Source of the DNA: Neckera pumila
Taxonomy: Eukaryota > Streptophyta > Bryopsida > Hypnales > Neckeraceae
Length of the DNA: 64,000 nt
Reading direction: 5' to 3'
NCBI GenBank assembly: GCA_963969595.1
Contig: OZ018416.1
Coordinates: forward strand, 5,286,065 to 5,350,064
Shown: positions 4,576 through 56,200 of the stretch, one piece after another
Position numbering within the stretch: position 1 is the first letter of the stretch
How the letters are laid out: the number at the start of each line of letters is the position of its first letter
The notes under the pieces: generated by a model
Seen by the model: the letters and a program-made list of their open reading frames with translations, nothing else
Database searches by the model: none
What the model was told of the DNA's origin: nothing
Program-made: the position numbers and the translations under genes

Positions 4576-4631
4576 CTCGCCGCAGAGCGAAAAGAGAAGT
4601 TTTGAACGAAATTTAAAAACAAGGAGCGTCG

Positions 4632-5696
4632 ATGGCCTTACAAACAGAATCTGTCTATCCAAGAATACCTGCAGAACCAGGTTTCAAACCATTGGAAGAG
4701 GACGGGACAAATTACATAATGTGGATGACGAATATGCGTCAATACCTTTCTAGTAAAGGCTTAGAGGGTATAACAACTTGCCCACCAACACCGGCTGAAG
4801 TAGAAAGACGGAGGAAGGCAAAGGAAGAAGATCCCACATTGATTTTTGGAAAGTCCGAAGCAGATTATGATCGAATGCAGAAAGACACAGCTACCTTAGC
4901 AATCCGTCTAAGACTCAAAGACGATCTAGCCCTTCAAATGTATCATCATGATACACCTAGCGACCTCTGGGAAGAGATTCAATCCCGTTTTGAAGCCATG
5001 CGTGAAATTACATATCCTGAAACATGGCAAGCATGGTTAAGTCTTCGTCATATGGATTTTGACCTACTTGATGATTATAAAGCAGCGCTATTTAAACTGA
5101 CAGCAAAGCTAGCATATTGTAAGAGGCCAGTAACAGAAGAAGACATAATATTCAAGACATTATCGACAATGGGACCCGAAAGGATGGGACTTCGAGAGTC
5201 ATTGCTAGCAAGAGAATATAAGAACTCAAGAGACCTATTCATTTACCTGGCTGAGAATGAGAAATTCAACAATGTTGCAAAAGAATTGGCAAAACAAAGA
5301 CCTGCTGGGACTATAGCGACCCCAGAATTGAATTACACAAGAGAAAAACAGCAGGATCCAAACAGAAGAAGAAAACCGTGGAAAGGACAAGAGAAGAGGG
5401 CTCGGAGATCCGCGACCCCTAGTAAGAAAGATGAGGATAATATAAGGAAGAATAAATCAAAAACCTTTGGGAAGTGTTTCAGATGTGGCAAGAAACGTCA
5501 CTTCGCACGAGATTGTCGAACACCAAAGGACGTTGTTGATAAATACCGAAGAGAAAATAATTTGTCACCCTGGAGAGGCACTAAGAAAATCAGTAATGAC
5601 AAGAACAAAAATAAACAGCAACGTACTGAAAACGAAGATGAATATAATTATTTGGACCAGGTTCGCGTTGAGGAGACAAATGCAGTATTTGAATAG
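4632..5696 (+). CDS. Copia Gag
   Basis: 354-residue Gag-type protein that would form the particle packaging the element's RNA. The N-terminal two-thirds has the UBN2-like character of copia Gag, with a tryptophan-rich opening (DGTNYIMWMTNMRQYL, about residues 25-40). A basic, lysine/arginine-rich stretch at about 235-280 precedes one CCHC zinc knuckle (C282, C285, H290, C295: CFRCGKKRHFARDC). The frame ends at TAG 5694-5696. The same frame continues downstream into protease, so this stop may be a mutation or a leaky stop; the next bases are CAACAG, only partly like the TMV-type readthrough context. The ATG at 4632 is the first in-frame start after the leader. Confidence 0.93.
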   Translation: MALQTESVYPRIPAEPGFKPLEEDGTNYIMWMTNMRQYLSSKGLEGITTCPPTPAEVERRRKAKEEDPTLIFGKSEADYDRMQKDTATLAIRLRLKDDLALQMYHHDTPSDLWEEIQSRFEAMREITYPETWQAWLSLRHMDFDLLDDYKAALFKLTAKLAYCKRPVTEEDIIFKTLSTMGPERMGLRESLLAREYKNSRDLFIYLAENEKFNNVAKELAKQRPAGTIATPELNYTREKQQDPNRRRKPWKGQEKRARRSATPSKKDEDNIRKNKSKTFGKCFRCGKKRHFARDCRTPKDVVDKYRRENNLSPWRGTKKISNDKNKNKQQRTENEDEYNYLDQVRVEETNAVFE

Positions 5697-8600
5697 CAAC
5701 AGCGGACAAATAGATCAATGATGCTACTTGATTCAGGAGCGACAATTACAGTCGTCACAAGTGCCAAATACTTCACGAAGATGCAGCGTGAAAACTATAA
5801 GATAGCCTCGATGAGTGGTTTAAATCTCATTGTACGTGGATCAGGACCAGCTACGTTTATTTTACCTGGAGGCACTCGCATCTATGCTGAAAGAGCTCTT
5901 CTTATTCCGACGGCAAGAAGACAAGTTTTATGCGAGAATGATGTGTTTAACAGTGGCTATGAGATCAACACACACATATTCACGACAGGGGAAAGGTTCA
6001 AGACCCTTACGAACGAACATGGAAATTGTGCAGAGAAGTTTTATTATACTGACAATGGCCTTATCGAATTTGAAATAGCAACCAACGAGTTTATTGCACT
6101 TACAAGAGAGATCACTGATGATGGCAGACTTTGGCACGACCGCCTGGGTCATCCCTCAACGAGAATGCTGCAAAATATATTAAAATCGACAGCGGGAAAC
6201 ATCAAAATTTCATCAAGGCTACCTGAGTCATGCCTGGCATGCTCTCGGGGCAAACTCATACTACGTCCAGCAAAAGAAATAAAAGATAAAGAGCTCAAAC
6301 CTTTCCTCAATCGCATTCAGATTGACATATGTAGCCCGATATCACCACCATCAGGACCATTTAGGTACTTTATGGTGATGATAGACTCCACCTAAAGGTG
6401 GAGTGAGGTCAACCTGTTGTCAACAAGGAATCACGCTTTCGCGAAGATGTTGATACAGTTAATCAGGATGCAAGTTAGATTTCCAGATAATGGTGTCAGG
6501 GACATTCGAGTTGATGGGGCAGGTGAGTTTACGTCTAAAACATTCCAAAATTACTGCACAACACAAGGTATAACACTTGAAGTAGCACTACCAGAAGTCC
6601 ATTTTCAGAATGGACTCGCGGAAAGCTTAATTCGGAGAATACAATGGATAGCTCGTCCTCTGCTACTCAAGTCCAACTTACCTTTAACGGCCTGGGGCCA
6701 CGCAGTAATGCATGCTGCTGATCTCATTAGATACCGCCCATCTGCAGGAAATAAGATGAGTCCACATCAGTTAGCGACGGGAAATGCACCGGATATAAAA
6801 CATTTAAGGAAATTCGGATGTTCTGTTGAGGTGCCGCTTGACCCCACGAAAAGGAAAAAGTTCGGACCTCAGAGGAAGCAGGGTATCTACGTTGGGAACG
6901 TAGGTAATTCCCTGATAAAGTATATAGAACCAAAAACTGGAGACCTATTTAGGGCAAGGTTTCTAGACTGCCATTTTGATGAACAACATTTTCCATTCAT
7001 GGAAATCAAAGAACAGCTGCCTGCCACGGTTTTAGACATTAATTGGCATACATCGACAATTGAAGACAGCCCAGATTATCGCTGCGATGGGGAAGTGCAA
7101 CGAATACTGAGGCTGCGAGAACTTGCTCGCAAGCTACCTGATGCTTTTGCTGACACACCTGATATTGTAAAAACCCCCTACACCCAAGTACAATACACTC
7201 CAGCACGAATACTACCAGATAATACACCGGCGAACGTCTCTCAAATTCGACGAAAAAGGGGACGTCCTTTAGGGTCTAAAAATAAGCCAAAGAATTTAGG
7301 GAGAGCACCACATATTACTGGGGGGGCATTGCTGGAGACAGGGGGAGTAACACAAGGTCCAAGGGGAGTAGCAACTAACCAGCCTAGCTTCGAAGAAGCA
7401 ACGGATGTAGCACTCACTGATCACGTCTGGGATAGACGAACCATTTGTAAGAATGAAGCCTTGATGGTGCACACCGTCAATGCTATTTTAGAAAACCCTG
7501 ACATACCAAAAACGGTCCCACAAGCAAAGAGATCAGTAGAATGGCCGCACTGGAAACGTGCAATGCAAGATGAGATGAATTCAATGAAAGAAAGACAAGT
7601 CTTTGGGGTGCCGCAGCCTAAGACACTTGATATGAAACCCATTCGTTCTAAATGGGTTTTTGCAAAGAAAAGAGACTCTGAAGGAAAGATAATCCGCTAT
7701 AAAGCATGCTTAGTTGCGAAGGGCTTTACTCAACAGTTTGGAATTGACTATGATTTCACCTACAGCCCAGTAATGGATTCAATTACATTCAGATTCCTAA
7801 TAGCTCTGGCTGTGCAGGAAAGACTCTCATTTAGACTGTTAGATATTGTCACAGCCTACCTGTATGGCAGGATGGACAAAGAAATGTATATGGAGCTCCC
7901 CGAAGGGGTAGAATCCATCAACTCGACAAAAGAGAGCTCAATGCAGGATATGGGCAACTCGGGACAGTCCCAGAGAGCAAAAGCAGAGCTAGTCGACAAG
8001 AAAACGCAGGATTTGGGAAAGGGCCATAAACGTGTGACGTTTGCCCCCTCCTCAGATCATACCAATCTTGAAAATCTGAATATCATCTCTAGGAAGAGAA
8101 AGAGAGAACTGGGTCAAGTTGTAAGGATCCAGAAAGCCATTTATGGCTTGAAACAGTCTGGACGACTATGGTACCAGAATTTAACGGATTATCTGATCCA
8201 ACAGGGTTTTAAAGCAAATAAATACACACCTTGTGTATTTGTGAACCGCAGAGGAAAGCACCTTGTGCTGATCACAATTTATGTCGACGACTTAAATATC
8301 TTCGGCACTCGGGCAGCAGTCGAGAAAACTGTTGACCTGATGAAACACAAGTACAAAGTCAAGGACTATGGACGAACTCCAAGATGCTTAGGCGTGGAAC
8401 TAGAGCATTTTGAGGACGGCTCTGTATTCTTGCATATGACTTCATATACAAGTAGACTTCTCGAGAAATTCGCGATGTCAGAGGCTCATCCAGTCTCCAC
8501 ACCTTTAACGGTCAGAACCCTAAAAACGGATCAAGACGAGTATGGTCCGTTGCGAGACAATGAAGAGATACTCTCTTCGGAGTACCCATATATTACCGCT

Positions 8601-9302
8601 GTAATGTCAATGTCTTGATTATCGCTAAATGTAAGACCAGACCTGAAGTTCTCAACTCATTTATTGTCAAGACATAGCGCGGAACCGACTAAACGACACT
8701 GACGCGGAGTAAAACATATGCTACGTTACTTGAACGGGACCAGAGACTACGGCATTCTTTTTGAAAGAAATTTCCAACCGATTAAAGGTTATGCAGATGC
8801 CGGGTACCTGTCGGCTCCTGAGAAAGGAAGGTCGCAATCCGGCTACGTTTTTACTATGGCTGATTCAGCGATCTCCTGGAGTTCGAAGCTACAACCCACA
8901 GTCGCAACATCTTCAAATCATGCTGAATTGATCGCCTTATTTGACACCACCAAGGAAGCTGTTTGGCTGCGAAATATGTCATCAAGCCTAAAAACGTTAG
9001 CAAACCTCGAGATTGATATAAAACCTATGAAGATCTTCGAGGATAATGACGCCTGCCGGCACCAGATGTCAGAAGGTTTCATTAAATCCAACAATACGAA
9101 GCATTTGACACCGAAAATCTTCTATGCTGCTGAGCAAACAAAAATCGGCACCATATCCATCGAGAAGATTACCTCTGCCGAGAACATCGCTGATTTGTTT
9201 ACAAAAACGTTACCACCATCTACCCATCACAAACATATGTTGTCAATGAAGATGCGATCGTTAGCACAAGTCCGAAAGGAAAAGACACAACTTAGTTCAT
9301 AA
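5697..9302 (+). pseudogene. Copia Pol polyprotein, interrupted by three in-frame stops
   Basis: Order of domains: aspartic protease with DSGA (5730-5741); integrase HHCC zinc domain (HDRLGHP ... CLAC, about 6130-6245); integrase core with QID near 6318, RVDGAGE near 6510 and the catalytic E in NGLAES near 6620; reverse transcriptase with YVDD at 8280-8291; RNase H ending in TKHL and LFTKTLP motifs. Stops inside the frame are TAA 6393-6395, TGA 8616-8618 and TGA 8700-8702; with the gag stop that makes four. At 8700 the family normally has tryptophan (TKRHW), so TGG to TGA is the simplest cause. About 70 extra, polar residues separate the PEG and IYGLKQSG motifs of the reverse transcriptase. 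The terminal TAA is at 9300-9302. Confidence 0.95.
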
Positions 9303-10430: not shown

Positions 10431-13077
10431 CCAATTACAAAAGAGCGGTGTCTTGATGGACGGATTGACTTTCTTTGCAGAAGGACTACTACACAAGGAG
10501 GCTGAAGATACACGCATGGAAAAAATGGAGCTTTCACCTTGTGTGCTCTCAATTGCAATTCTGCAACATCCTCGGCTGTTGTTCAGGTACGTCTTCTGCA
10601 CTTAATTTCATTTGCATGACCATTCTTTCCGCAATATTCCTTTCAGGTTGTAAATGTCAATGCTATCTCCACAATATTCTTTTCAAGTCATAAACATCAA
10701 TGCTATCTCCGCAATATAGTTACAACTTTTGTATGTATACATTTCTCGACAACTAATTAGAGCATTGCATCTTCAGCTCTGTAGAATATGTTGCAGATTG
10801 AACTCAAAGAAATCAAGTGTTGTCATATTGCAAAAGCTGGAAATAAGGTTGAAGCTAAAAAACCTTATAATCTACATTAGAAGCATGTTGCCAACATATA
10901 ACCCACCTAGGCCTGCTATGGAAGAGAGTTGTCACCTTGGACATGGTATACAATTTTCATGAGTAGCAAAGGAGCAGTTTTGGCAATGCCACAACCTGTT
11001 TACATGGGGAAGCACAAATTCTTAATCTGATGTTATGTCCATTCAAATTAGCATAAATACATAATGAGTATACACGACAGACCGTTCTAATTTATGTTGA
11101 TAGATCCAAAGAGCCAAAATCTTTATGTATGCTTTTCTAGCCCCACTTTGTCTCTAATTTTGATGTGTGACGTAATCAGTCCGAAAAATTCACTGCCATA
11201 ATCTTGGAGCTCTCAAGATGTAACACAAACCTCTTTCTTGTTCACCATCTTGGTTGCAATCATACTTCAGCAGTGTGCAGGTTTAATGACAAGTGTAGTT
11301 TCAATAGGGAAGCACTGCTCACTTGCTTCTTTTTGAGCCTCAAATTCAACAGGCCTTGCACTTTTCTGTAAAATTTCAGAGCTAAGATTGGACCTCAAAA
11401 TGGAAAATAATCGTTTGTGCTTTTTATATTTCCATCAGAGCATATTGCTATCACAGGTGCGAATCCCTCTCCTCACTAACTTCTCGTTTGCCTCGCTGCA
11501 CTTCTTTCAAAAATCTAGGAATTATGGGAAGCTACAAGTGTAAACACCTCGGCAATACATACATACCACAAATCATGGACCCTACAATTTTGGAAAAAAG
11601 ATTCTTCTCACAGCTACAAGACTTATTTTAAATTTACCAGCTCTCCTATGGTAGAGCCAAGTGAGAACGTACCTTTCAGACTCGGGGAGGGCACTTGGTT
11701 CTATTACTACAAACCACGTGCGAGCAAGTGGTTTTTAATAAACTATATTTCAACCTAAAATTTTGAGCATTGTTTGGTAATGACTATTGGTTTCTATTGC
11801 CAAAATTTCCAACTCAAATGAAATATAGAATGATTTCTAGAAGAGGTTGAAAATGAACCTAAAATGGCATATTTTTCAACTCAAATATTTATAAAGAACA
11901 CATTTAGATGACCGTTGCATCAATATTCAACTCAAAATGAGCTTTTAATAGAGAGTTATTTTTAGGAATTTTTTGTTCATTTTTTAAACAATTTTCTAGG
12001 ATATAATATAGGAGTGTGAAAGTTATTTTTCAGTTTTGCAGTGTATTTAATTACTTCAAAAATTTGTAACTAATTATCATTAGCAAATAAAAACATCAAT
12101 AATTCAAAACATAAACTTTCAAATTAGAAAAATATATTCATATTTTTTTTGTTTTCTTTTATTTAACTTTTAGGATATGATATAGGGGGTACAAAGTTTT
12201 GGTTGCTCGTAGTTTGGATTAGATACACTCAGTGTACCCCCCATGCTTTCAGACTTACCTTTCAGCCTTGTGTCAAGGATTGAACACTGCAAGGTATGGT
12301 TTCATTCCTATTTTCTTTATTACACATGTCCATAGTTACATAAAGTTGAAACTAACTAAAGTAGAACAAACCATTATAGTCAATAGATCCATCACGAACA
12401 CCTAGGAAATGTCCTTGTCACAAATTTTTTTTCAATAAAATGAAATTAGGACAACAATCAATGTCTTAGGTGATGGTAATGGAGTGATTATTGACTACAA
12501 TAGGAACTTCAAGCTTTAAATTTGGGTGTAAATTCATTGTAGAAAGTGGGTTTTTTAGATCTTCATGTTGTGGCCATGTTAGAAAATATTGTGATTGCTT
12601 TAGGTGAGTAAGATGCGCATTATGGAAACAATTTTTGTTGGTTTGGGGGCAATATTTTGGGCCATGATGGGCATCACATGTCAAAAATTCATAACAAATT
12701 CATACTTTGTTGAAAAAATATAATTTCAATTACTCTCACCGTTTTTCACACTTGTCTTTATGTGGGATTTTTCTCTTAAAATTTTAGCACTGGCATGAGG
12801 GAAAACTCTTTATTCTGACCATGATGGGTTGCTCTACCTTAGTTTCCTGACATTGCATTTCACAATGGCCAAAGGAAGTGTTTTCTTTAGAACATTATGA
12901 AGAAAAATGGAACTCTTGTGCATCAGAATACATTTCAAACAGTGCCTTGCAATGCTCAAAGACTATGATGTCAGCATGGTCATTACAAGATGTTCAAACC
13001 TTTTGTGTTGTACAGAGAACTGGTCAGAGCAATCCATTTTTTTAAATTTTGGAAGGTTTAAGTTACTGATGGCTTGC
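10431..13077. other. Intergenic, no gene seen
   Basis: No supported coding region. The only structure noticed is a short inverted pair, agggggtac near 12185 against gtacccccc near 12225. Open frames here are short, not conserved in character, and driven by base composition. Confidence 0.4.
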
Positions 13078-19829: not shown

Positions 19830-20345
19830 ACAGCCAGCTTTATGCGAGGAGGAGAATCTACTAGCAAAATATCTTCTAGAACACGAGAGTTTGTCCAACA
19901 CTGATAATGAAGAGCTTCTGCAGTTCTTCATACCCAAGTGCGGGTATCCAATTCTAGGGAAACCTATTGGCCATGGCTCATTTGGAGCTATTTGAGGTGA
20001 AGTGGTTGGGCTTGACCTGTGCACAAAAACACTACAGTGCGATAGAACAGGAAGAATGGATGCATCAGGAGTGTATGAAAGAGGTGAACATTTGGCAAAA
20101 CCAAACAACCCTCACATTGTGAAACTTCTGTGTGAGTTTGAAGCCTGAGGTCTCATTTGTGATGGAGATCATGCCCATAAATCTGACCGATTTTATCAAG
20201 ACTCAGTGGAAGAATCACACGAGCATGCCATTTATAATCTTGGGAGTAATTGACATCATGTTGCAGATTGCGCAAGGAATGGATTATCTGCATGAACAGG
20301 GCGTTGCACACCGAGATTTGAAATCCTCCATTGTTCTCGTGGTTC
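19830..20345 (+). pseudogene. Plant-type protein kinase, truncated pseudogene
   Basis: Read across frames, the plus strand shows kinase subdomains in order: a glycine loop (LGKPIGHGSFGAI, near 19955-19995), then NPHIVKLL, FVMEIMPINLTDFI, and IDIMLQIAQGMDYLHEQGVAHRDLKSS near 20255-20330. An in-frame stop follows the glycine loop, the frame shifts afterwards, and the sequence leaves the kinase pattern right after HRDLKSS, so DFG and the C-lobe are missing. The wording resembles a large family of non-seed plant TKL-like kinases (from memory of that family). It is non-functional as a kinase. Confidence 0.75.
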
Positions 20346-20725
20346 AATCAATTGTACTTGTGGCTCTTTATACAGTTGGGAGGAGGGAGATACACAAAAG
20401 TGTGTTTTTGGGCTTGTTCTTGATGTGCTCTACACTCATTTAAGCTTGGGTTGAGTGGCTATAGAAGTCTTGTACCTGGATTGATTGATCGTATTTTTAG
20501 TAGAACCGTTTCTCAGTTGTCAAGATTGATAGATTGAAGGTAGGTGGGTGAATTTGCTTGCTAGCAGCTGTGACGGAAGTGGGAAGCTTCAGCAATGACG
20601 AGGTTCATTAGGGTGGAAGGGGCTTGCTCTCTGTCTATCAACACCCCCATTGTGTCATTTCGTGGTGTGTTTTTTATGTGGTTTGAATTTTGTTGGTGCA
20701 GTCAGAAGCAATTGGTTTCAAGTTA

Positions 20726-23341: not shown

Positions 23342-23419
23342 TCAGTGCCACGTGCGGCACCGGTTACAAAACCCTTCATCGACTGGATACTCACTGTCAA
23401 CCTCTTCCAGGACTGCTTT
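23342..23419 (-). CDS. Candidate last exon of the TIR gene
   Basis: On the minus strand a good acceptor (branch-like tttactaaacc, pyrimidine-rich tract, ttgcag) ends at 23420. It is followed by 26 codons that read KAVLEEVDSEYPVDEG, then FCNRCRTWH and stop TGA (23342-23344). It begins in phase 0, the same phase as the cassettes B to E upstream, so any of them could be spliced to it without a frame change. The gene connection is inference; no protein family is recognised. Confidence 0.4.
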   Translation of the reverse strand, partial: KAVLEEVDSEYPVDEGFCNRCRTWH

Positions 23420-23872
23420 CTGCAAGGACGATCAAGGAGGTTTAGTAAAATGAAAATAACTAACCCTTCAAAGTCATGATGAAAGCCTCAGTAAGCACAT
23501 ACTTAGTTCGTCCCGTGTTTCAACTTCCAGCGTACAACGGCCAACGATATTGTGTCAGACACGTCAAGCTAGAAAGGCTCAGCCAGAGCAAAACAACTTC
23601 TGACAGATGCACTCCCATTAAAATTACAAGATATTTATCAACATAGTCCGTTGATCCACGAAATATTACAATCTGATCCCGGTTGTACACCACACACAAG
23701 CGCCCATTTCCATGTGAATCCAATCACACTCAAGTCATAAGTACAGCATAGAAATTGAAGAGCCAAGTCCATGAAGGAATATTGTCAACCACCAATTCCA
23801 AGACTCCACGAGCAAACATAGCATCCCGCGAGAGAGCAGCATTTCAAAAGGAAGAGTGGAAACAGCTGTTAC

Positions 23873-23956
23873 CTCCTTGTATGATGGCATCAGATCATCT
23901 CCCACCTTGGGTGGGCCAGTACCTCTATTCAATTTACCAAGCATGCCAGCGAGGGC
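23873..23956 (-). CDS. Variable cassette exon E
   Basis: 84 bases between ctcacag and gtaacag: 28 codons, open, phase 0 at both ends. It contains LGKLNRGTGPPKVG and ends SYKE. Upstream sequence back to 24076 is also open in this copy, so a longer 68-codon exon starting LDVSDTISLAVV is an alternative. No domain is recognised. Confidence 0.5.
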
Positions 23957-24319
23957 CTGTGAGATCATTGCAACATAAAAGTCATGATGAATGCCTCCGT
24001 AAGCAAATACTTTGTTCGTCCCGTATTTCAAGCTCCACCGAACAACGGCCAACGAGATTGTGTCAGACACGTCTAGCTACAAAATATTACGGAGTACAAT
24101 CTACAGAGGGTTTCGTGATCCAGGTTGTACACCACACACAAGTGCCTATTTCCATGTGAATCCAATCACTCAATCATAAGTACAGCATAGAAATTGAAGA
24201 GCCAAGTCCATGTAGGAATATTGTCAACAACCACGAGAATTCCAAGACTCCACGAGCAAACATAGCATCCCACAAGAGAGCAGCATTTGAAAAGGAAGAG
24301 TGGAAACAGTTTTTGTCAC

Positions 24320-24400
24320 CTTGTTTGGTGGCATCACTAAATCCGTGTCCACCCATCGGCCAGAACGTCCAGTCAACTTGTTATACTCAATCATGAGAAC
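24320..24400 (-). CDS. Variable cassette exon D
   Basis: 81 bases between tgtacag and gtgacaa: 27 open codons in phase 0, beginning VLMIEYNKLTGRSG and ending MPPNK. The conserved stretch before it is frameshifted relative to copy E, which favours an intronic reading of that stretch. Confidence 0.5.
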
Positions 24401-24599
24401 CTGTACAATCAATGCAACTTAAAATTCATGTAAGCACATACTTTGTTCGTCCCATTCTTCAGGCTCCACCGTACAACGACCAACGAGATTGTGTCACACG
24501 TCAAGCTACAAAGGCATAGCCAACTTCTGTAAGATGAACTTCCATTTAATTACAATTTATTATCAAGATAGTTAGTTGACCCACTAAATATAACAATAT

Positions 24600-24745
24600 G
24601 GGCAATTTCATTAAAATGGCGGTATTCTAAGTGCCACTTTGACGGTGTGCCATTTTCACCATGCAGAACAGGTATAGATTTAGAACAGCCGTTCCGAATG
24701 GTTTTCACGCCATTTTAAAATATCGTCATTTTAATGAAATTGCCC
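24600..24745. mobile_element. MITE, TTAAAATGGYGG-ended family, copy 2
   Basis: 146 bp. The termini GGGCAATTTCATTAAAATGG and ccattttaatgaaattgccc-type sequence are inverted, with one or two mismatches over 27 bases. It is the best-preserved of three copies and lies between cassettes C and D of the TIR-gene array. Confidence 0.85.
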
Positions 24746-24960
24746 ATTCAATCCACGTAGGGTTTAGTGATCCAGGTTGTATACTACACACAAATGGCCC
24801 ATTTCCACATCCAATCACTCCAGTCAAAAGTATGGCATAGAATTACAACGTAGCCAAGGGTATGTCGGAATGTAAACTCCAAATTCCAAGACTACACAAG
24901 CAAACATAGCTCCCTGCAGGAGAGCAGCATTTGAAAAGGAAGAGTTGAAACAACTCTTAC

Positions 24961-25038
24961 CGCGTCGTATCCCTCATTTTTTGGCATGTTGGATGGGCCA
25001 CTAGTTCCTCCGTTCACAACATCAAACGTGGGGATGTC
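24961..25038 (-). CDS. Variable cassette exon C
   Basis: 78 bases between ctcacag and gtaagag: 26 open codons in phase 0, beginning DIPTFDVVNGGTSGPS and ending EGYDA. The conserved sequence upstream is cut by the insertion at 25062-25692, which also removed most of that intron copy. Confidence 0.5.
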
Positions 25039-25061
25039 CTGTGAGATCATTGCAACTTAAG

Positions 25062-25692
25062 ATTCATGATCAATTTAACCCCTAAGCGCTCAAGCGACCA
25101 TTTTATGGTCGCTGCCCGACTTCGGGCAAAATTTTCGGGCAAAAAAAAAAAAAAAATTTTTTTTTTTTTTTTTTTTTTTAAAATTTTCTCAAAAGATTGG
25201 GTTGTCTATCAATATTTATACTCAAAACTCAGATCACTATGGTCAAACAAAAACTATAAGAGAAATAGCACAAAGTGTCTAGATTTGCCTAGTGTTGAAA
25301 AACTTACTATTTGGAGAAAGTAATGGTATTTTCATTACTAGATCTTATGCATTTTTTCACAAATCAATAGAAACCACAATTTTGACAAATCCAAAAAAAA
25401 TTCAAATGCTAATAATAGAAATTGTATTTTTGGTGAATTTTTGAAGTTGTATCTTCAAAATTCATTTAAAAAAAATCTAAGAATAATTTTACAATTTTGA
25501 CCGTCCGGATGCTTTCTACTTTTCATGCTTCACATTATCTTCTTTAATGCAAACTTCAAAAAAGTTTTAGAACTTATATTTTATAACACATTTGTATTTT
25601 GTCCAAACCCCTTGGGCTTCTAGGGGTTAATTTATTGGGCACCGTTCTTTGGAAAGAAAAAATTAGGAAAAAAAAAAAAAAAAATTCATGAT
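25062..25692. mobile_element. Insertion flanked by attcatgat, with poly(A), carrying element 4
   Basis: attcatgat occurs at 25062-25070 and 25684-25692. Just inside the right copy is an A-run of about 16. If element 4 and one TTAA are removed, only about 60 bases of insert remain, ending in A-rich sequence, as expected for a short retroposed or 5'-truncated LINE/SINE insertion. Since attcatgat-like words belong to the host unit, unequal exchange is an alternative. Confidence 0.4.
25079..25626. mobile_element. piggyBac-like non-autonomous element 4
   Basis: 548 bp bounded by TTAA at 25075-25078 and 25627-25630. Termini are CCCCTAAGCGCTCAAG and, inverted, CCCCTAGAAGCCCAAG. A subterminal palindrome gcgaccattttatggtcgc and a long A-run followed directly by a T-run (about 25145-25180) follow the left end. 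It is non-coding. Confidence 0.85.
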
Positions 25693-25736
25693 GAATGCCT
25701 CCGCGTTTGGAAAGGAAGAGTTGAAACAGCTGTTAC

Positions 25737-25808
25737 CTCCTCGTCTGATCGCACCCGCTGTGTTCGCACCGTGGATGGGCCGGAATCTCCGTTCCAACCA
25801 TCACTTAC
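25737..25808 (-). CDS. Variable cassette exon B
   Basis: 72 bases between ttcacag and gtaacag: 24 open codons in phase 0, beginning VSDGWNGDSGPS and ending SDEE. The start GTAAGT also looks like a donor, so this copy might be skipped or read through. Confidence 0.45.
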
Positions 25809-26239
25809 CTGTGAAATCATTGCAACTTTAAAGTCATGATGAATGCCTCCGTAAGCAAATACTTTATTCGTCCTGTGTTTCAACTTCCAGCGTACAACGG
25901 CCAACGAGATTGTGTAAAACGGTCAAGCTACAAAGGCCCAGCCAGAGCAAAACAACTTCTACTAGACACTTCCATATAATTACAAGATATATTATCAAGA
26001 TAGTCAGTTGACCCACGAAATATTACAATCTGTAGAATATTTAGTGACCCAGGTTGTACACTACAATCAAATGGCCCATTTCCACATCCAATCACTCAAG
26101 TCACAAGTATAGCATACAAATACGAGAACCAAGTCCGTGTGGGAATGGAACACAAAAGTCCAAGAATCCACGAGCATACAGACCTTCCCAGGATAGAGCT
26201 GCATTTGAGAAAAATGAGTTGAAACAGCTGTTGAACCAC

Positions 26240-26291
26240 CCTTGTATGGTTGCACCTGACCCTTCAAACCATCAAGCTTGTCAGAGATGCC
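26240..26291 (-). CDS. Variable cassette A, joined to the TIR exon
   Basis: After the TIR frame ends at gcatag the next bases encode GISDKLDGLKGQVQPYKG before a GT at 26238-26239. The position corresponds to cassettes B to E, but the length (52 to the nearest GT) is not a multiple of three. It is either a degenerate cassette or uses another donor. Confidence 0.35.
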
Positions 26292-26840
26292 CTATGCGAC
26301 GTTCTTCAAAAACTTGGCCTTCTTCCGAAAATCTTTCTCTTCTTCTTTGAAAGTTTGACCGTGCGTATCTAAGAGCCTATTGACAGCTTTCTCCCAGACC
26401 AGAGACTGGACGTCTTTGGGGTGAAGCATTTCCCATTTCTCCCACGTTGACAGCCATTCCCTGCGCTTTTCGTTCGCCTCATTTGGGCAGAGATTAAAGA
26501 ATACAGGATAGAGGAGCGGCACGGAACGAGATCCATTCCCGGTTTTCATTGCTGTGTAACTCTCAGCCAACTCCATCATAGGCCACCTGCTTACTGTGAA
26601 ATAGTCCTCCGTCACAAACACAACGAACAACTTACATGTCCGGGCACAGTGCAAAATAGGTTTGCGAATCCGCTGACCATGTTCCGTGGAAACTTTGTCA
26701 AAAAAAACGCTGACATCTTCGCCGCATACTTTGACCAACTCATCGTACACATGCTTGACGTAGCCTTCCTGAGCTGAACTATAGCTCAAGAAAATATCGT
26801 AACGTTCAGACATCGTTTCGTGAATAGATCGGCCCTGCAT
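26292..26840 (-). CDS. TIR-domain protein (main exon)
   Basis: Up to 182 residues with a TIR fold, the domain of plant immune receptors and TIR-only NADases. The first strand is YDIFLSYSS (14-22). Helix A follows (YVKHVYDELVKVCG), then VSVFFDK (44-49), FVVFVTEDYF (72-81), and SRWPMMELAES (84-94), where E90 matches the catalytic glutamate of TIR NADases (established for plant and SARM1 TIRs). PLLYPVFF (108-115) is the D strand region. No NB-ARC or LRR follows. The exon is preceded by a good acceptor (ttctttcaatgcag); a start at the second methionine, MSERYDIF, is equally possible. It ends TAG, which falls where cassette copies have their acceptor AG, so short and spliced forms may both exist. 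Confidence 0.85.
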   Translation of the reverse strand: MQGRSIHETMSERYDIFLSYSSAQEGYVKHVYDELVKVCGEDVSVFFDKVSTEHGQRIRKPILHCARTCKLFVVFVTEDYFTVSRWPMMELAESYTAMKTGNGSRSVPLLYPVFFNLCPNEANEKRREWLSTWEKWEMLHPKDVQSLVWEKAVNRLLDTHGQTFKEEEKDFRKKAKFLKNVA

Positions 26841-28800
26841 TGAAAGAACCCAAACCGAGGCGATACGACTCTTTCAGCAACAAATGGTGATACTCGGTCG
26901 TGGATGCAGCCTGTGACCTGCACAAGCAAGCCACAGAGAATAATCAGAAAATAGAATCAAAATAGGCTTGTAATCGATATAAATTAATCAATACAACCAA
27001 TGCACATCTTCACTCTGGGATCCACTTGAAGGATACCGGTATCTTCTTCTTGGACTACTTGAACACATTGCAAACAGTTCAGAGAACATCAATCCAACTG
27101 GTAAAAGAGCATCAAACATAGACGGAACTCTCAGCTTGATTGTAAATTGGCTCATCTCTAACATAGAGGTCGCCCTAGTATTTACTTAGTTAGCAGTTGC
27201 AGAATGAAAACAATAACGATCATAATGACGTTCCTTCACGATATCGACCCTTCATGATAACGGTCGGCAGGACGTGGTCATCGCCGGATTTCGTAGCATC
27301 AGCGGCGGAGCTGACGCCCTAGTGGAGCAGCATTTACTACGCTTAACGCTCGACACGAACCGGTCCTCTAAACCATGCGAGAGTGGTGAAATTCAAGGCT
27401 CACTAAACAACAAAACAGGAAACGTGGATAAAACATGGAATTAATAAGCCAAATCGCTCTCACCGTTCTGACATATGCAGAATGTTATGGACCATGTCAG
27501 ATATTATTCTTCAGCAGATAGAGAATTACGGTGAAGAATGACCTGGTAAGTGACTTGTGTGCTCCAGCATCTTTCCCAAAGCACCCCAAGACTATTTGCT
27601 CACTAAAGTCAAAAACTCAAGATTTTGTTAGGAACCAATGCAAGTCGATAAGTAGTGCATTCGAAGCCACAGATTTGAGCTTACGTAGTGATATTTGTCA
27701 CATGTGAACACAATTTCCGGGAACTTATCGGGCCCACTTTTCTCAAGCCGATACCAAGTCAAGGATAAAATCCTTGCAACTTGTGAGTGCGACGGCGGAG
27801 TCTTAGGGGCAAGAACAGATCATAAGACGGCACTGCAGGCATCCGGAGGGGTAGCAATCCGGGAGTTTAGAAAGGATGATCAATTGATCTCACATTCTTC
27901 CTCAAAATGGTAGGTAAGCGTTTGGCGAGAACTTGAATCAATACCTGTCCTGAAGTTTAAAGAAAAGTCTACCTGTGCATCAGCTTCTGGACTGTTGGAA
28001 AATTGCCATTTAAAAAATGCGAATCTCCGTTCTATCCAATGACCCGACGGGAACTAGTTTTGCCCTCATTCCCCCACGCCATGTCATTCCTCATAACTCC
28101 AACAATCCAAAGACGCAACCAGCACCCTGTAAAGGCAAAATTCTACGGACACTCAAAGCATAGTTCATCCCATAACCTTAGATGTGATTCCACACACCAA
28201 GAAGTCCCTCCTGCATCCACCGAAATGCTCTCACAAAGGGAAAGCATGTTCTGCAAACTACCGACACAAGCCAATTGCAAGAAGATTCACAACGTTACCA
28301 CGAATCCGTCGCACTTTCTCCACAGTTGCACAGAATAGCGCAATGTCGGCCTCTAATCGCCGATGACACAAAGCTCGATTTGAGGATCGGATTCTTACGA
28401 TCTGAAATAACAAAATACGCCTGCACATGAAGAGAAGCCACTCCGTCTCTCGGTTATATTGCAACAAAACAACAAGATTCTCAACTTGCAAATTCAAACC
28501 TCGGAGTAAGATCAGCCGGAGGATCGGCGTTGCGTCATCGGAGGGCCGTGGAAGCATGTTGTGGGGGTTCGATCACCCCACAACATGCAGGGGGTTCAGT
28601 CTGCAGGGTTTCTTACTTCCTACTCCCTGTGTCTCAAAATCAATCGGTGGTTTCCTGGAAAAGGCTAGATTGACGCGTAAGATGCTCCCACTTGTGCACA
28701 TGATGCACCGACACGACAGCGCACATGATTCAGTCGGTACCAAAGAGGGTGATTTCCACGGTGAACGACCAGCCCGGCTTTCTAGGGTGTTCTAGGGTTA
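26841..28800 (-). other. Leader region of the TIR gene (untranslated or undetermined exons)
   Basis: Upstream of the TIR exon on the same strand. Patches at about 27735-27890, 28080-28200 and 28250-28420 resemble 58.24-59.5 kb, including a ctcaaryCGATACCAAGTCAAGGA-type patch and a ctttctccac...cacagaatagcgcaatgtcgg patch. No convincing exon frame was fixed. The conservation between two loci suggests leader exons or promoter sequence. Confidence 0.45.
28554..28588. repeat. Short perfect hairpin
   Basis: gcatgttgtgggg and ccccacaacatgc are perfect complements around a gttcgatca loop. It lies near the presumed 5' end of the TIR gene. Confidence 0.7.
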
Positions 28801-39011: not shown

Positions 39012-40351
39012 CTATTGGAAACAACCTTTTTGAAAGCACATCAATTTGTTGTCACATGTCAGACAGTACATCTTCGGCCTAATAAAAAGAGTGGACCCGT
39101 CATTGCAAACAACGCATGCCCTCCGGAAACTGCTGAACGCTTAATAACAAACGTGTGTCCGCCGTGGCAATGGAATGGCCTTGTTTCCTTGCATTTGTCC
39201 AAATAAATAATATATATGTTCACCAGGCTTGTGTCAATGACAAAGAAAAAAATGCAATGCCACCACTTATGCGAACGAGTTTGACAAGTGTACGATGCAC
39301 GCAACTGGTCTGCAACGTCAACCCCCCTCATGTACGTTGTATATTCCAAATGCATTGGTGATGTCTGTATTTGCTTGCGCATAGAACCACTTTGCCTTGG
39401 GACATATACCACTATAAACTTGCAAGGAAACTGCACTGGCTTTGCGTGTGTTGAAATAATCAAAACCGGTTTCTTGTCCTTCCAAACAATAGCGCATATG
39501 CGGCGAGATTCGTGCATTTGCCACTCCAAAGTGCCATGTGGCTCCCTATTGAATGACTTTATATTTTTTAGGACACTTAGAAGTCCTATCCCATTGCACC
39601 GAATAGTACCCGTGACATATGTCCCTTCTTCATACAGCGTTGTGAACAAAGGAATGCTTAGAAAAAAGTTGTCCATCACAATAAGATGGCCCCGGCCCTC
39701 AATTAGTGTCCCTAGTCGAAGCACAACATCATGAGCCAATCGTAGTGCCCCACTAGCTGCTAGACATAGTACATGGGCACCTTCATCAAGAATGGGATCT
39801 TTGCCGCAATATACTTCAAAATTCAAGACATATTTTGATTTTGCATTTGCCAAATACCAGACCTTCAGACCCCATTTTTGTGGTTTCTGTGGCATGTACT
39901 AGCATGCTGGGCAATAGGTCCCCTTGTACCTAATCATCATCTCATCCACCGTTGCAAGTTTTTCCAAACTCCATGCACTCTTGCAACTATCTCGAATTGC
40001 GGTCAACAACCACCAAATTTGGCCCATTTTGTCATATCTGGATCTAATTTTATTGCTCTCATACTCTGACGGATTTCTAACATGCAAACACCTAGTCAAA
40101 CTTGCAAACCGATTGCAGGACATCATGTCGCTAATAGTTGGGCAATGAAATACGGAGCCTTCCTTTTGCCAATACGTTCCAACATTGGGCTGCCTCCTCA
40201 TGCCCATATACAAAGTTATGGCAATAAAAACTTTCAACTCCGCTGTTGTTAGAGGATTCCAATCCTCTCCTCCAAAAGTTTTGCCATCTCGATGCAAAAA
40301 AGTGGCGTATTGATTTGTTTCAATGGCTATTTGGCAAAGAACCCCCTCAGG
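39012..40351 (-). pseudogene. piggyBac transposase, degraded
   Basis: On the minus strand the frame opens at 40351 after a ttag that could be a splice acceptor, and passes through the piggyBac core (DDE_Tnp_1_7): AIETNQYA, AELKVFIAITLYMGMRRQP, SRYDKMGQIWWLL, VDEMMIRYKG, PQKWGLKVWYLA. A single in-frame TAG (39899-39901) sits just before YMPQKP. The first catalytic Asp position reads Asn (YLANAKSKY); the second (VMDNFFLSIPL) and third (GVDVADQ) Asp are kept. Near 39105 a frameshift leads into the C-terminal cysteine-rich domain (CNDGS ... YCLTCD), ending at TAG 39012-39014. It cannot make active enzyme. No TTAA/CCCC ends were found directly around it. Confidence 0.93.
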
Positions 40352-53261: not shown

Positions 53262-56200
53262 TTATGTCTTCGCAGGGCGGCCTCTTTTCTTTGGGGTTGG
53301 CGTCGTAGCAACAGCAGCAGGAGCATCTGTCTCAGGTTTCGCCTTCGCAGGGCGGCCTCTTTTCTTTGCCTCGGCCGAGCCAACTGGAGTGGTTGCACCT
53401 TCCTCCCCTTTGGCCTTCTTCGTCACCTCGGACTCTTCTGGAGCTTCAGGTTTCGCCTTGGGAGGTCGACCCCGGCGCTTGGGCGTTACGGGCTCGGCGT
53501 CATCCTGTTCTTCTTTAGCTGGAGCCTCTTCCAAAGCCTTGCTGACGGCCTCCTTGGAAGCATCAGCTTTTGCCTTTGGAGGCCGGCCTCGTTGCTTGGG
53601 TGGCTCAGCAGGACTCTTCTTTTCAGTCTCTGAAACCTCCGTCTTCTCGTCGCTGGTCTTCACGGTAGTTTTCAGCTTCGGAGGTCTCCCCCGCTTCCTC
53701 GCTACACCAGGACTGTTGTTGCTGACGGCTGCTGCAGGTGTCGCTGCATTGTCCGCTTTCGCTTTTGGAGGCCGTCCCCTACCACGCTTAGGAGTTTCGC
53801 TAGGACCCGCTTTATCTGCACTGACATCACCGGTTGCAGTATCTGCATCCGCATCAGGGTCTACCACAGCCTCATCTTCAGGTGGTATTTCATCTGTAAC
53901 AGTTGCGGTAGTCTTTGCTCCTTTCAGCTCAGGTCCACTGTATTTCTGTACAGCTGGGACAAAAGCTGAGGTCTGCACCAGCAAACACGGTTCTTAAAAA
54001 TAAGGTATCTCAAGAGTTTATGATACTCACAAATAGGGCACAAATGATAAAATTCAGAAAAGTATGTACGGATTGAGTCCTGAGCGGCATTCAGGTGAAG
54101 CAGGAAATACTTACCCTTCCGCTAATGGTTATCTGCTGAATCTGGTGTCCTGAGAAAATCAAACACAAGATCAATTGGGTTTGCAGAAAGACAAGGCGAC
54201 TGATGACATTCAAGGATGGACCGACTAAAATAATTGGTACAGCTTAGCATATAGAAAAGATCATTTCTTACTGTACATACCATCAATCAATCCAGGCTTC
54301 TTGGCCCAGCGATGATGGAACAACCAACCCTGGGGAAATTGCTCGCTGTCTGCATCGACGGAAACTGCCTTATCCAAAACCTACAAAAAAGAACTCACCG
54401 CAATCGGAAATGCCAATCAGCTATCTGAGTTAAATAAAAAATACTGCACTTTCACATTCAACACAAATAAACACCAAGAGGGCCCCTTCGATTGAAAATA
54501 GTCTCAATATTCGGTAGCAAAAGTATTAATAACACACCACCCAGAAGCAACACAATTGCTCACCCAGCCGATACTTTTGTCAAAAAAGCCAGAGATCAAA
54601 AGGAAACTCGAAGATAAAAGACTTCTTGTCGGAAATCAAGTTCATACCTCCCGAATGGCAGAATGTAATCTGGTGACTTCCTCCTCCTTCAAAGAGTTTG
54701 CTAACTGCTCGGGGTGAATTTTTGACTGAAACAAGGATCATTCTTCATTAGAACAAACCTCAGAGATCGCATGTCACAAGCCTCAGTTCACAGACAAAAT
54801 AAGAACATATTTCACACGGAGGCCACGTTTCGACCTTCCTAAGCGCCGCTGTGCCAAGTGATCATACGGTAACAGATATTTATGAAGTCGCAACACAGCA
54901 CAACCTCGATTGACACGGTTCAGATCTATGAACCACCGCTGGCATTCCTAAAGTGTGAATAATGAAATCAAAACAAAATAAAATACGTCCCACAGTCCAC
55001 TCTAATTCGTCAATACCGCCCAAAGAATACCTGGTAAAGGACTTCATCTCCCACCCAGTTTCCAATGCCTGCAAGAAAACTCTGCAGGGACCAACGAACT
55101 TGCGTTATTATCACACCTGCCAAAATACAAAATTTAAAGAGATTGCAGATCATGACTGTCATTTTTCAGTAAGATACGCTTACCATGACGATATAGAATT
55201 ACGAGTGACCATGAGACGATAGGATCTCCCAGAGCTCAAAAGGGCCATAAGCTATACCAAAAAACAAATCCCTTCCCCTGTGCAGTACCTGATCAAGAAG
55301 AAGGGCTTTAACAGATCCTTTCTTAGGTTTGAAAGCTTCAATCAAATCTTTTGAACTTGGAAGCTCTAAATAAGCATCAAAACCCAGCTCAGAAATAGGT
55401 GGCACTTTGGAAGGCTGCAAAAAAAAAAAACGTAGTCACAAGCAAAATGGTCATGAACTGAGACGCGTTGCTGGGATAATAAAAGACGTGGAGTTGATTG
55501 AGACGGTAAGTTACGGGTAAAAACACCAAAAAACGACTGCTGGAATGAAGAGACAATTGGACTACAAAACTGCAATACTTGAAGACAAAGATAAATGATA
55601 ACACAAAATTGACATAAACTTGTAAGAACACGTACGTCATCGAGTAGGCGTACACGAGCAAAACGACGTTTATCAGTAAACGCCACTTCCACTCCGCTGT
55701 CCAACTACATGCCACCATCCCAATTCAGCTGTGTCAGTAAAGCATTGCCACAACAAATCCACCCCCTAAAATATACAAGAACTGCATTTGGAATAGGAAA
55801 CTCCTGTAATAATGATCTGAAATTAACTAGAGCTAAGGACACAATATCCAACACATTAAAATAACGAGACGCTAATAAGTCCGCCATATAAAAGATACAA
55901 AATACTATTTCACAAAATACTATGAGCAAGAACCAATGTCCAACAATTATCTTAACATCAGCGTCGCTTACAAGCTTGCAGTCTTTAATTCAAAGGGACG
56001 CTTGGGCTCCCAGTGCATCATAGAAAGCACGCGGACTCCCTAAAATGCAAACGGAGGAACTAAGCTAGACCGTGGAATAAGTAGTCGCTAATATAAAGAG
56101 CCCCATTCTGAAAGGCTAACACCACCAAAAAGAGAAGTTGTCATGATAATTGTACAATATGAATAGAAACTATCTTAGACATTGACCAGAATTTGATCTG

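What the first reader, a model, noticed from the sequence alone, without database searches (positions are those of the whole stretch)
23342..26840. TIR gene with a tandem array of divergent, in-frame cassette exons
Downstream of a TIR exon the minus strand repeats a unit in which the supposed introns are clearly alike between copies while a short block between an AG and a GT is very different in each copy. Blocks B, C, D and E are 72, 78, 81 and 84 bases long: all multiples of three, all open, all phase 0 at both ends. A candidate last exon (23342-23419) also begins in phase 0. Coding blocks that diverge faster than their introns, with frame kept, are what one expects of swappable or alternatively spliced variable segments under diversifying selection, a plausible design for an immune-type gene. 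The arrangement of TIR plus a variable cassette array is not one I know. Weak points: block A is not a multiple of three, and how the TIR exon is spliced to the array is unclear.
Basis: partly seen in the sequence, partly recalled or inferred. Interest (0 to 1): 0.88.

Follow-up and report, generated by a model that had tools for sequence, protein, structure and literature searches.

The report
Moss TIR gene with duplicated tail exons
A plant immune-type (TIR) gene, probably of a moss, carries four small extra exons that descend from the tail end of such a gene and changed faster than the introns between them, but a stop codon in front of them suggests that they are now cut off from the protein.

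Summary
Blocks B, C, D, E (72, 78, 81, 84 nt) are open, phase 0 at both ends, separated by alike introns, and followed by a phase-0 last exon F. In C-D, C-E and D-E the blocks are 0.43-0.63 identical against 0.79-0.87 for flanking intron; no 80-column intron window is as divergent. The genome is a land plant's, most likely a moss's. A TIR paralog 69 kb away explains the origin: block C matches the C-terminal end of its TIR exon in the same frame, and its tail carries the block motif. The array thus looks like tandem duplication of a TIR exon's 3' end plus intron. Its units 4-5 match nothing else found in the genome, which argues against mobile introns. The leading copy (A) is broken: an in-frame TAG precedes it, and its two donor candidates are weak and phase 1, so the TIR cannot join the array in frame by the homologous junction. 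Most likely: formerly translated, fast-diversifying tail exons, now uncoupled; present product a TIR-only protein of 173 (or 182) residues. A live cassette array through another donor is not excluded; RNA data are needed.

The parts
26295..26813 (-). TIR coding exon, ATG at 26813-26811, 173 codons before the TAG (182 from an upstream in-frame ATG at 26840-26838; the paralog has a stop between the two)
   Evidence: Pfam TIR_2 E 2.2e-10, TIR 1.2e-8 (on 172 residues without the Met); PDB relatives TcpB and AT1G72930; coordinates; Glu of W-P-M-M-E-L invariant in 7 of 7 aligned TIRs of this genome
26292..26294 (-). In-frame TAG that ends the TIR frame directly before tail copy A; aligned codon in the paralog is CGG, aligned bases in copies B-E end in CAG at the splice acceptor
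26241..26291 (-). Tail copy A, 51 nt, in frame with the TIR exon but after the stop; 33 nt shorter than E, without the SGP motif segment; its GT donors (26239, 26236) are phase 1 and weak
25809..26240 (-). Intron-like unit 1 (432 nt)
   Evidence: 80-82% identical to units 3, 4 and 5
25737..25808 (-). Block B, 72 nt, VSDGWNGDSGPSTVRTQRVRSDEE
25039..25736 (-). Intron-like unit 2 (698 nt), core missing and a TTAA-bounded repeat element (about 25075-25630) present
   Evidence: element in at least 39 further genomic places, 90-94%
24961..25038 (-). Block C, 78 nt, DIPTFDVVNGGTSGPSNMPKNEGYDA; TSGPSNMPKNEGYD matches TSGPTYIPQENGYD of the paralog's TIR exon
24401..24960 (-). Intron-like unit 3 (560 nt) with a 150-nt inverted-repeat insertion (24598-24747)
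24320..24400 (-). Block D, 81 nt, VLMIEYNKLTGRSGRWVDTDLVMPPNK
23957..24319 (-). Intron-like unit 4 (363 nt)
23873..23956 (-). Block E, 84 nt, ALAGMLGKLNRGTGPPKVGDDLMPSYKE
23420..23872 (-). Intron-like unit 5 (453 nt); its last roughly 45 nt look unlike the ends of the other units and give the acceptor of F
23342..23419 (-). Candidate last exon F, KAVLEEVDSEYPVDEGFCNRCRTWH and TGA
   Evidence: acceptor ccttgcag, phase 0; no homology shown

Best explanation
This is a TIR-X (TIR without NB-ARC) gene in a land plant, most likely a moss. The 3' end of its TIR exon, together with the intron behind it, was duplicated in tandem. An exonic CACAG-like sequence just before the tail would then have served as the new splice acceptor (inferred), so each duplicate became a small internal exon, phase 0 at both ends. 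Four such exons (B-E) and a last exon (F) once gave the TIR protein a tail of units of 24-28 residues, which changed faster than the introns while keeping frame: diversifying selection on a translated, probably recognition- or partner-facing tail is the simplest cause. Later the leading copy took a TAG and a phase-shifted donor, so today the main product should be a TIR-only protein of 173 (or 182) residues, with the array a recently uncoupled relic or spliced 3' untranslated region. Shown: homology of blocks C and E to the end of a TIR exon and of most blocks to each other, frame and divergence pattern, stop, donor phase, no second copy of units 4-5 found. Inferred: past translation, selection, order of events, present product.
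For: TIR domain. Paralog at C9:5381765+, 57% identical, has TSGPTYIPQENGYD inside its TIR exon, matching block C in frame (score 49, 0 of 1000 shuffles; DNA score 19.5 against null maximum 16.0 in 200 shuffles), and behind it TAGTGGCCCATCCA, also in block C; block E aligns to the paralog tail at 20.0 against null maximum 17.5. Block against intron divergence. In the alignment the gaps between B, C, D and E are 12, 3, 3 and 6 columns, while 14 of 61 intron gap runs are multiples of three. TIR exon between paralogs: dN 0.328, dS 0.237, frame open in both; chance that both stay open without constraint 0.016 at 65 and 0.008 at 75 substitutions per lineage (0.065 at 40, 0.028 at 55; no indels simulated). 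Units 4-5 match only this locus. TAG and donor phase in A.
Against: Only block C matches the paralog TIR protein significantly; A (0.043), B (0.124), D (0.335), E (0.094) and F (0.557) do not, and none of the six matches the window's own TIR C-terminus. At DNA level 3 of 8 comparisons beat all 200 shuffles (window tail with C, paralog with C and with E; not B or D). The link between the bases before A and the intron ends of B-E is weak by itself (4 of 501 windows of the TIR frame and 404 of 7435 AG-ending 18-mers score as high). With gaps placed freely, pairwise block alignments contain gap runs that are not multiples of three. dN above dS in the TIR exon is not significant (95% interval of the difference -0.06 to 0.21), and NG86 dN exceeds dS in only 2 of 6 block pairs (B-E, D-E), though at such distance and length the estimate is poor. 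No expression data.
Confidence: 0.55

Rival explanations
1. A live cassette array: the TIR exon is spliced to one or more blocks through a donor upstream of the TAG (for example 26399, phase 0), exchanging the last part of the TIR exon for B, C, D or E plus F.
For: Blocks, donors, acceptors and F still look usable; phase-0 GT before the stop exist (26399, 26594, 26729 among the best 14 listed); block C resembles the TIR segment of the paralog that such a splice would replace.
Against: The 26399 donor is weak (0.07 against 2.3-3.7 for B-E); the other two lie inside the TIR domain; the paralog has AT in place of that GT (read by eye). The donor homologous to those of B-E is phase 1 and weak.
Confidence: 0.2
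2. A non-coding tandem duplication only: blocks were never translated and are open by chance; the TIR-only protein was always the product.
For: TAG stands before the array; neither of the two TIR copies has an open tail today.
Against: Frame kept and open in B-E at about 0.0015 by neutral simulation; untranslated blocks should not diverge faster than introns.
Confidence: 0.17
3. The array arose by insertion of mobile introns (introners) into one exon, so that the introns are alike and the exon pieces differ.
For: Fits alike introns and unlike blocks.
Against: Blocks are related to each other in 7 of 10 pairs; units 4-5 match nothing outside this array in 339.5 Mb at the tool's sensitivity; the last intron has a different 3' end.
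Confidence: 0.03
4. Blocks B-F belong to a separate small gene downstream of the TIR gene, with its own start.
For: The TIR frame ends before the array.
Against: Blocks C and E resemble the tail of a TIR exon, and the unit includes that tail; a start exon of their own was not searched for systematically.
Confidence: 0.05

Closest known systems
Brown algal ROCO genes with shuffled LRR exons (PMC11378527; passages seen)
   Same: Tandem, same-phase short exons (72 bp) in a candidate immune gene, diversifying selection and alternative splicing reported there.
   Different: There each exon encodes an LRR, in phase 2, and is spliced into proteins; here the blocks are phase 0, follow a TIR domain in a land plant, show no LRR pattern by eye, and the join to the TIR is broken. 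The related NB-ARC-TPR genes I know only from a title in that paper's reference list.
Bryophyte TIR-NLR and TIR-X genes (PMC11218826; passages seen)
   Same: TIR exon family; [quoted passage not shown]
   Different: No NB-ARC relative found in the window, against 5 of 8 other TIR loci that have one; a tail duplicated as exons, not seen in the 9 other TIR loci checked.
Arthropod Dscam exon arrays (recalled; mentioned in PMC11378527)
   Same: Tandem duplicated exons in an immune-type gene.
   Different: Mutually exclusive splicing is not shown here, there are four copies only, and no Ig domain is involved.

Membership tests
TIR domain proteins | TIR profile match over the domain | tested here: met
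   PF13676 2.2e-10 and PF01582 1.2e-8, above the curated cut-offs
TIR domain proteins | Conserved Glu of the W-x-x-x-E-L region (catalytic role recalled) | tested here: met
   Invariant in 7 of 7 rows of alignment A2 (its E80; residue 81 from the ATG at 26813); activity not tested
TIR-NB-ARC-LRR receptors (TNL) | NB-ARC exon behind the TIR exon | tested here: not met
   tblastn with 6 NB-ARC-region and 2 LRR-region pieces of relatives: no NB-ARC match in the whole window, one LRR match at E 0.010 at 11419-11580, far from the gene and on the other strand; the same pieces match 5 of 8 relatives
TIR-only / TIR-X | TIR without NB-ARC in a short protein | tested here: met
   173- or 182-codon frame, then TAG; splicing not tested
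Exon-array immune genes (brown algal type) | Tandem homologous exons of one phase | tested here: met
   exon status itself inferred, no RNA
Exon-array immune genes (brown algal type) | Array read in frame with the signalling domain | tested here: not met
   TAG and phase-1 donors in A
Exon-array immune genes (brown algal type) | Alternative transcripts | not testable with these tools
   no RNA data
Exon-array immune genes (brown algal type) | Diversifying selection on exons | tested here: inconclusive
   Blocks diverge faster than introns but NG86 dN exceeds dS in 2 of 6 pairs only
Introners | Same intron in many genes | tested here: not met
   units 4 and 5; unit 1 alone could not be searched

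The most novel reading that the evidence does not exclude
A land-plant TIR gene that exchanges its C-terminal end by alternative splicing to a tandem array of diversifying phase-0 cassettes, made by turning the 3' end of its own exon into exons: a splicing-variable TIR output in a plant.
Probability: 0.15. Interest if true: 0.82.

Novelty: new variant of a known kind. Interest (0 to 1): 0.45.

Why it matters
It shows, in one locus with an informative paralog, how repeated variable exons could be born from the end of an exon in a fast-evolving immune-type gene, and how such an array may be lost again. If transcripts do join TIR to the blocks, it would be a plant counterpart of the exon arrays of brown algae and arthropods, attached to a TIR domain rather than to LRR or Ig repeats. 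If they do not, it is a clean example of a short-lived experiment in tail diversification, with a TIR-only product.

Tried and rejected
Non-standard genetic code (TAG read as an amino acid): rejected; the decayed copia element has TAG, TAA and TGA stops in frame. Introners: rejected. Structure of the TIR from a single sequence: useless, mean pLDDT 42, so no fold search was made. Homologs of the window TIR alone in the protein collection: none at E 1e-3 among 16 candidates; the 7-sequence alignment gave 54, at most 37% identical to the window TIR; none of the 54 has an [ST]GP motif in its last 80 residues, so no outside ortholog of the tail was found. Survey for other arrays: 8 further TIR loci (plus-strand hits from the first 20 rows of the 105), about 3.9 kb downstream each, plus 3.7 kb behind the paralog: no comparable array in 9 of 9; L049 and L050 had one two-copy repeat each. 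First block-alignment script stopped on an error and had D one base off; redone. No tRNA and no Rfam match in the window. Literature: searches listed no report of a moss TIR gene with a cassette-exon array; I read the listings with titles and abstract starts, and passages of two papers. Zambounis 2012 is not held; its content is known to me from citations and recall.
Full report
What was checked. The window lies in G000:C9:5286065-5350064, a 339.5 Mb assembly of 18 contigs. An Fpg-type DNA glycosylase exon lies in the window (3.4e-18); 5 of 8 other TIR loci of the genome continue into NB-ARC-related sequence (Pfam itself names NB-ARC in 2 of the 5 downstream frames given to it); and the 4 of 54 outside TIR relatives that bear an organism name are from Ceratodon purpureus (2) and Adiantum capillus-veneris (2). 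I read this as a land plant, most likely a moss; the species is not known to me.

On the minus strand a TIR frame (ATG 26813, TAG 26294-26292, 173 codons; 182 from an upstream ATG at 26840) is followed by five intron-like units and four blocks B-E of 72, 78, 81 and 84 nt, then F with a stop. Units 1, 3, 4 and 5 are 80-87% identical in MAFFT alignment, with the insert in unit 3 left out; unit 2 has lost its core and holds a TTAA-bounded repeat found in at least 39 other genomic places. Blocks differ far more: C-D 0.43, D-E 0.55, C-E 0.63, B-E 0.64 against 0.79, 0.87, 0.82 and 0.92 for the flanks; B-C and B-D point the same way with p 0.067 and 0.05. With free gap placement the contrast is milder (C-D 0.59, C-E 0.65, D-E 0.74 against 0.85, 0.83, 0.90). 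In C-D, C-E and D-E none of 50, 58 and 51 overlapping intron windows of 80 columns is as divergent as the block. Gap runs in introns are multiples of three in 14 of 61 cases, counted over six non-independent pairs, whereas block lengths are all multiples of three and the gaps among B-E in the alignment are 12, 3, 3 and 6; freer alignments place other gap runs. A neutral simulation gives about 0.0015 for three blocks staying open and in frame.

What it came from. The search with the window TIR lists 105 TIR matches, only one full-length and close: a paralog at C9:5381765-5382295, 57% identical. Its TIR exon contains TSGPTYIPQENGYD, which matches TSGPSNMPKNEGYD of block C in the same frame (0 of 1000 shuffles), and behind it the tail carries TAGTGGCCCATCCA, also found in block C; block E aligns to the same tail. 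The other blocks do not match the paralog protein significantly on their own (A 0.043, B 0.124, D 0.335, E 0.094), and none matches the window's own TIR C-terminus; they tie in through their similarity to each other (7 of 10 pairs). I conclude that the blocks descend from the 3' end of a TIR exon. The intron ends before B-E may be former exon sequence too (alignment), but that link alone is weak. A query of 1171 bases from the array (23420-24590) matched only this locus in the genome; that search passes over simple repeats and very common words, and the query with the whole array was swamped by the repeat element.

Why the TIR is not joined to the array now. Copy A, fused to the TIR exon, starts directly behind an in-frame TAG where the paralog has CGG. 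Its end has only GT donors in phase 1, with low scores (-0.38, -2.84) on a recalled plant donor matrix, while B-E score 2.3-3.7. A is also 33 nt shorter than E and lacks the SGP segment. The paralog's frame ends in FLKKVARLIASRRGT and a stop; against E it has a 7-nt gap before the SGP motif, so its tail is not open either. Other phase-0 donors before the TAG exist (26399, 26594, 26729) but are weak or lie inside the TIR domain.

Selection. The TIR exon itself evolves fast between the two copies (dN 0.328, dS 0.237; difference not significant) yet stays open in both, which unconstrained change would give in about 1-2% at 65-75 substitutions per lineage. For the blocks, divergence above the intron level together with frame conservation is best read as diversifying selection during a translated past; NG86 on such short, distant pieces is not decisive, with dN above dS in 2 of 6 pairs.

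Reading. I hold it most likely (0.55) that the tail exons were once translated and are now uncoupled, leaving a TIR-only protein. A live array through another donor (0.2) and a never-translated repeat (0.17) remain. The nearest known design is the brown algal exon array of ROCO genes (PMC11378527, passages seen); this locus shares tandem same-phase exons in an immune-type gene, but not the repeat type, the phase, or a shown in-frame join.

Noticed in passing
window 25075-25630: TTAA-bounded repeat element with short inverted ends (piggyBac-type by its ends, my reading) in intron unit 2; at least 39 further places at 90-94% in the genome.
   Followed up: partly
window 24598-24747: 150-nt insertion with 33-nt arms, 91% complementary, in intron unit 3; a 102-nt part has an 83% match at C2:3445316-3445418.
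   Followed up: no
L013:4588-5861 and L014:4476-5753: Two near-identical stretches on C3 (97% over 8.1 kb), 197 kb apart, carry an 88% copy of about window 28020-26713: the 5' part of the TIR gene with about the first 32 codons, where the homology ends.
   Followed up: partly
L049:32-1506: Two TIR frames in tandem about 0.8 kb apart, with no NB-ARC relative found in the 4.5 kb fetched.
   Followed up: no
window 26892-28111: About 1.2 kb between the 5' homology and the TIR exon where the paralog has 7 nt; a possible 5' untranslated intron with acceptor near 26918.
   Followed up: no
window 4617-9302: Decayed copia element with TAG, TAA and TGA in frame.
   Followed up: no
window 39059-40351: piggyBac-type transposase fragments on the minus strand; DDE_Tnp_1_7 match 4e-35 for 39062-39898; the second frame was not searched.
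   Followed up: no
window 20123-20440: Protein kinase fragment, plus strand, 1.7e-10.
   Followed up: no
window 53265-53993: Frame with AT-hook motifs, minus strand, 3.4e-10.
   Followed up: no
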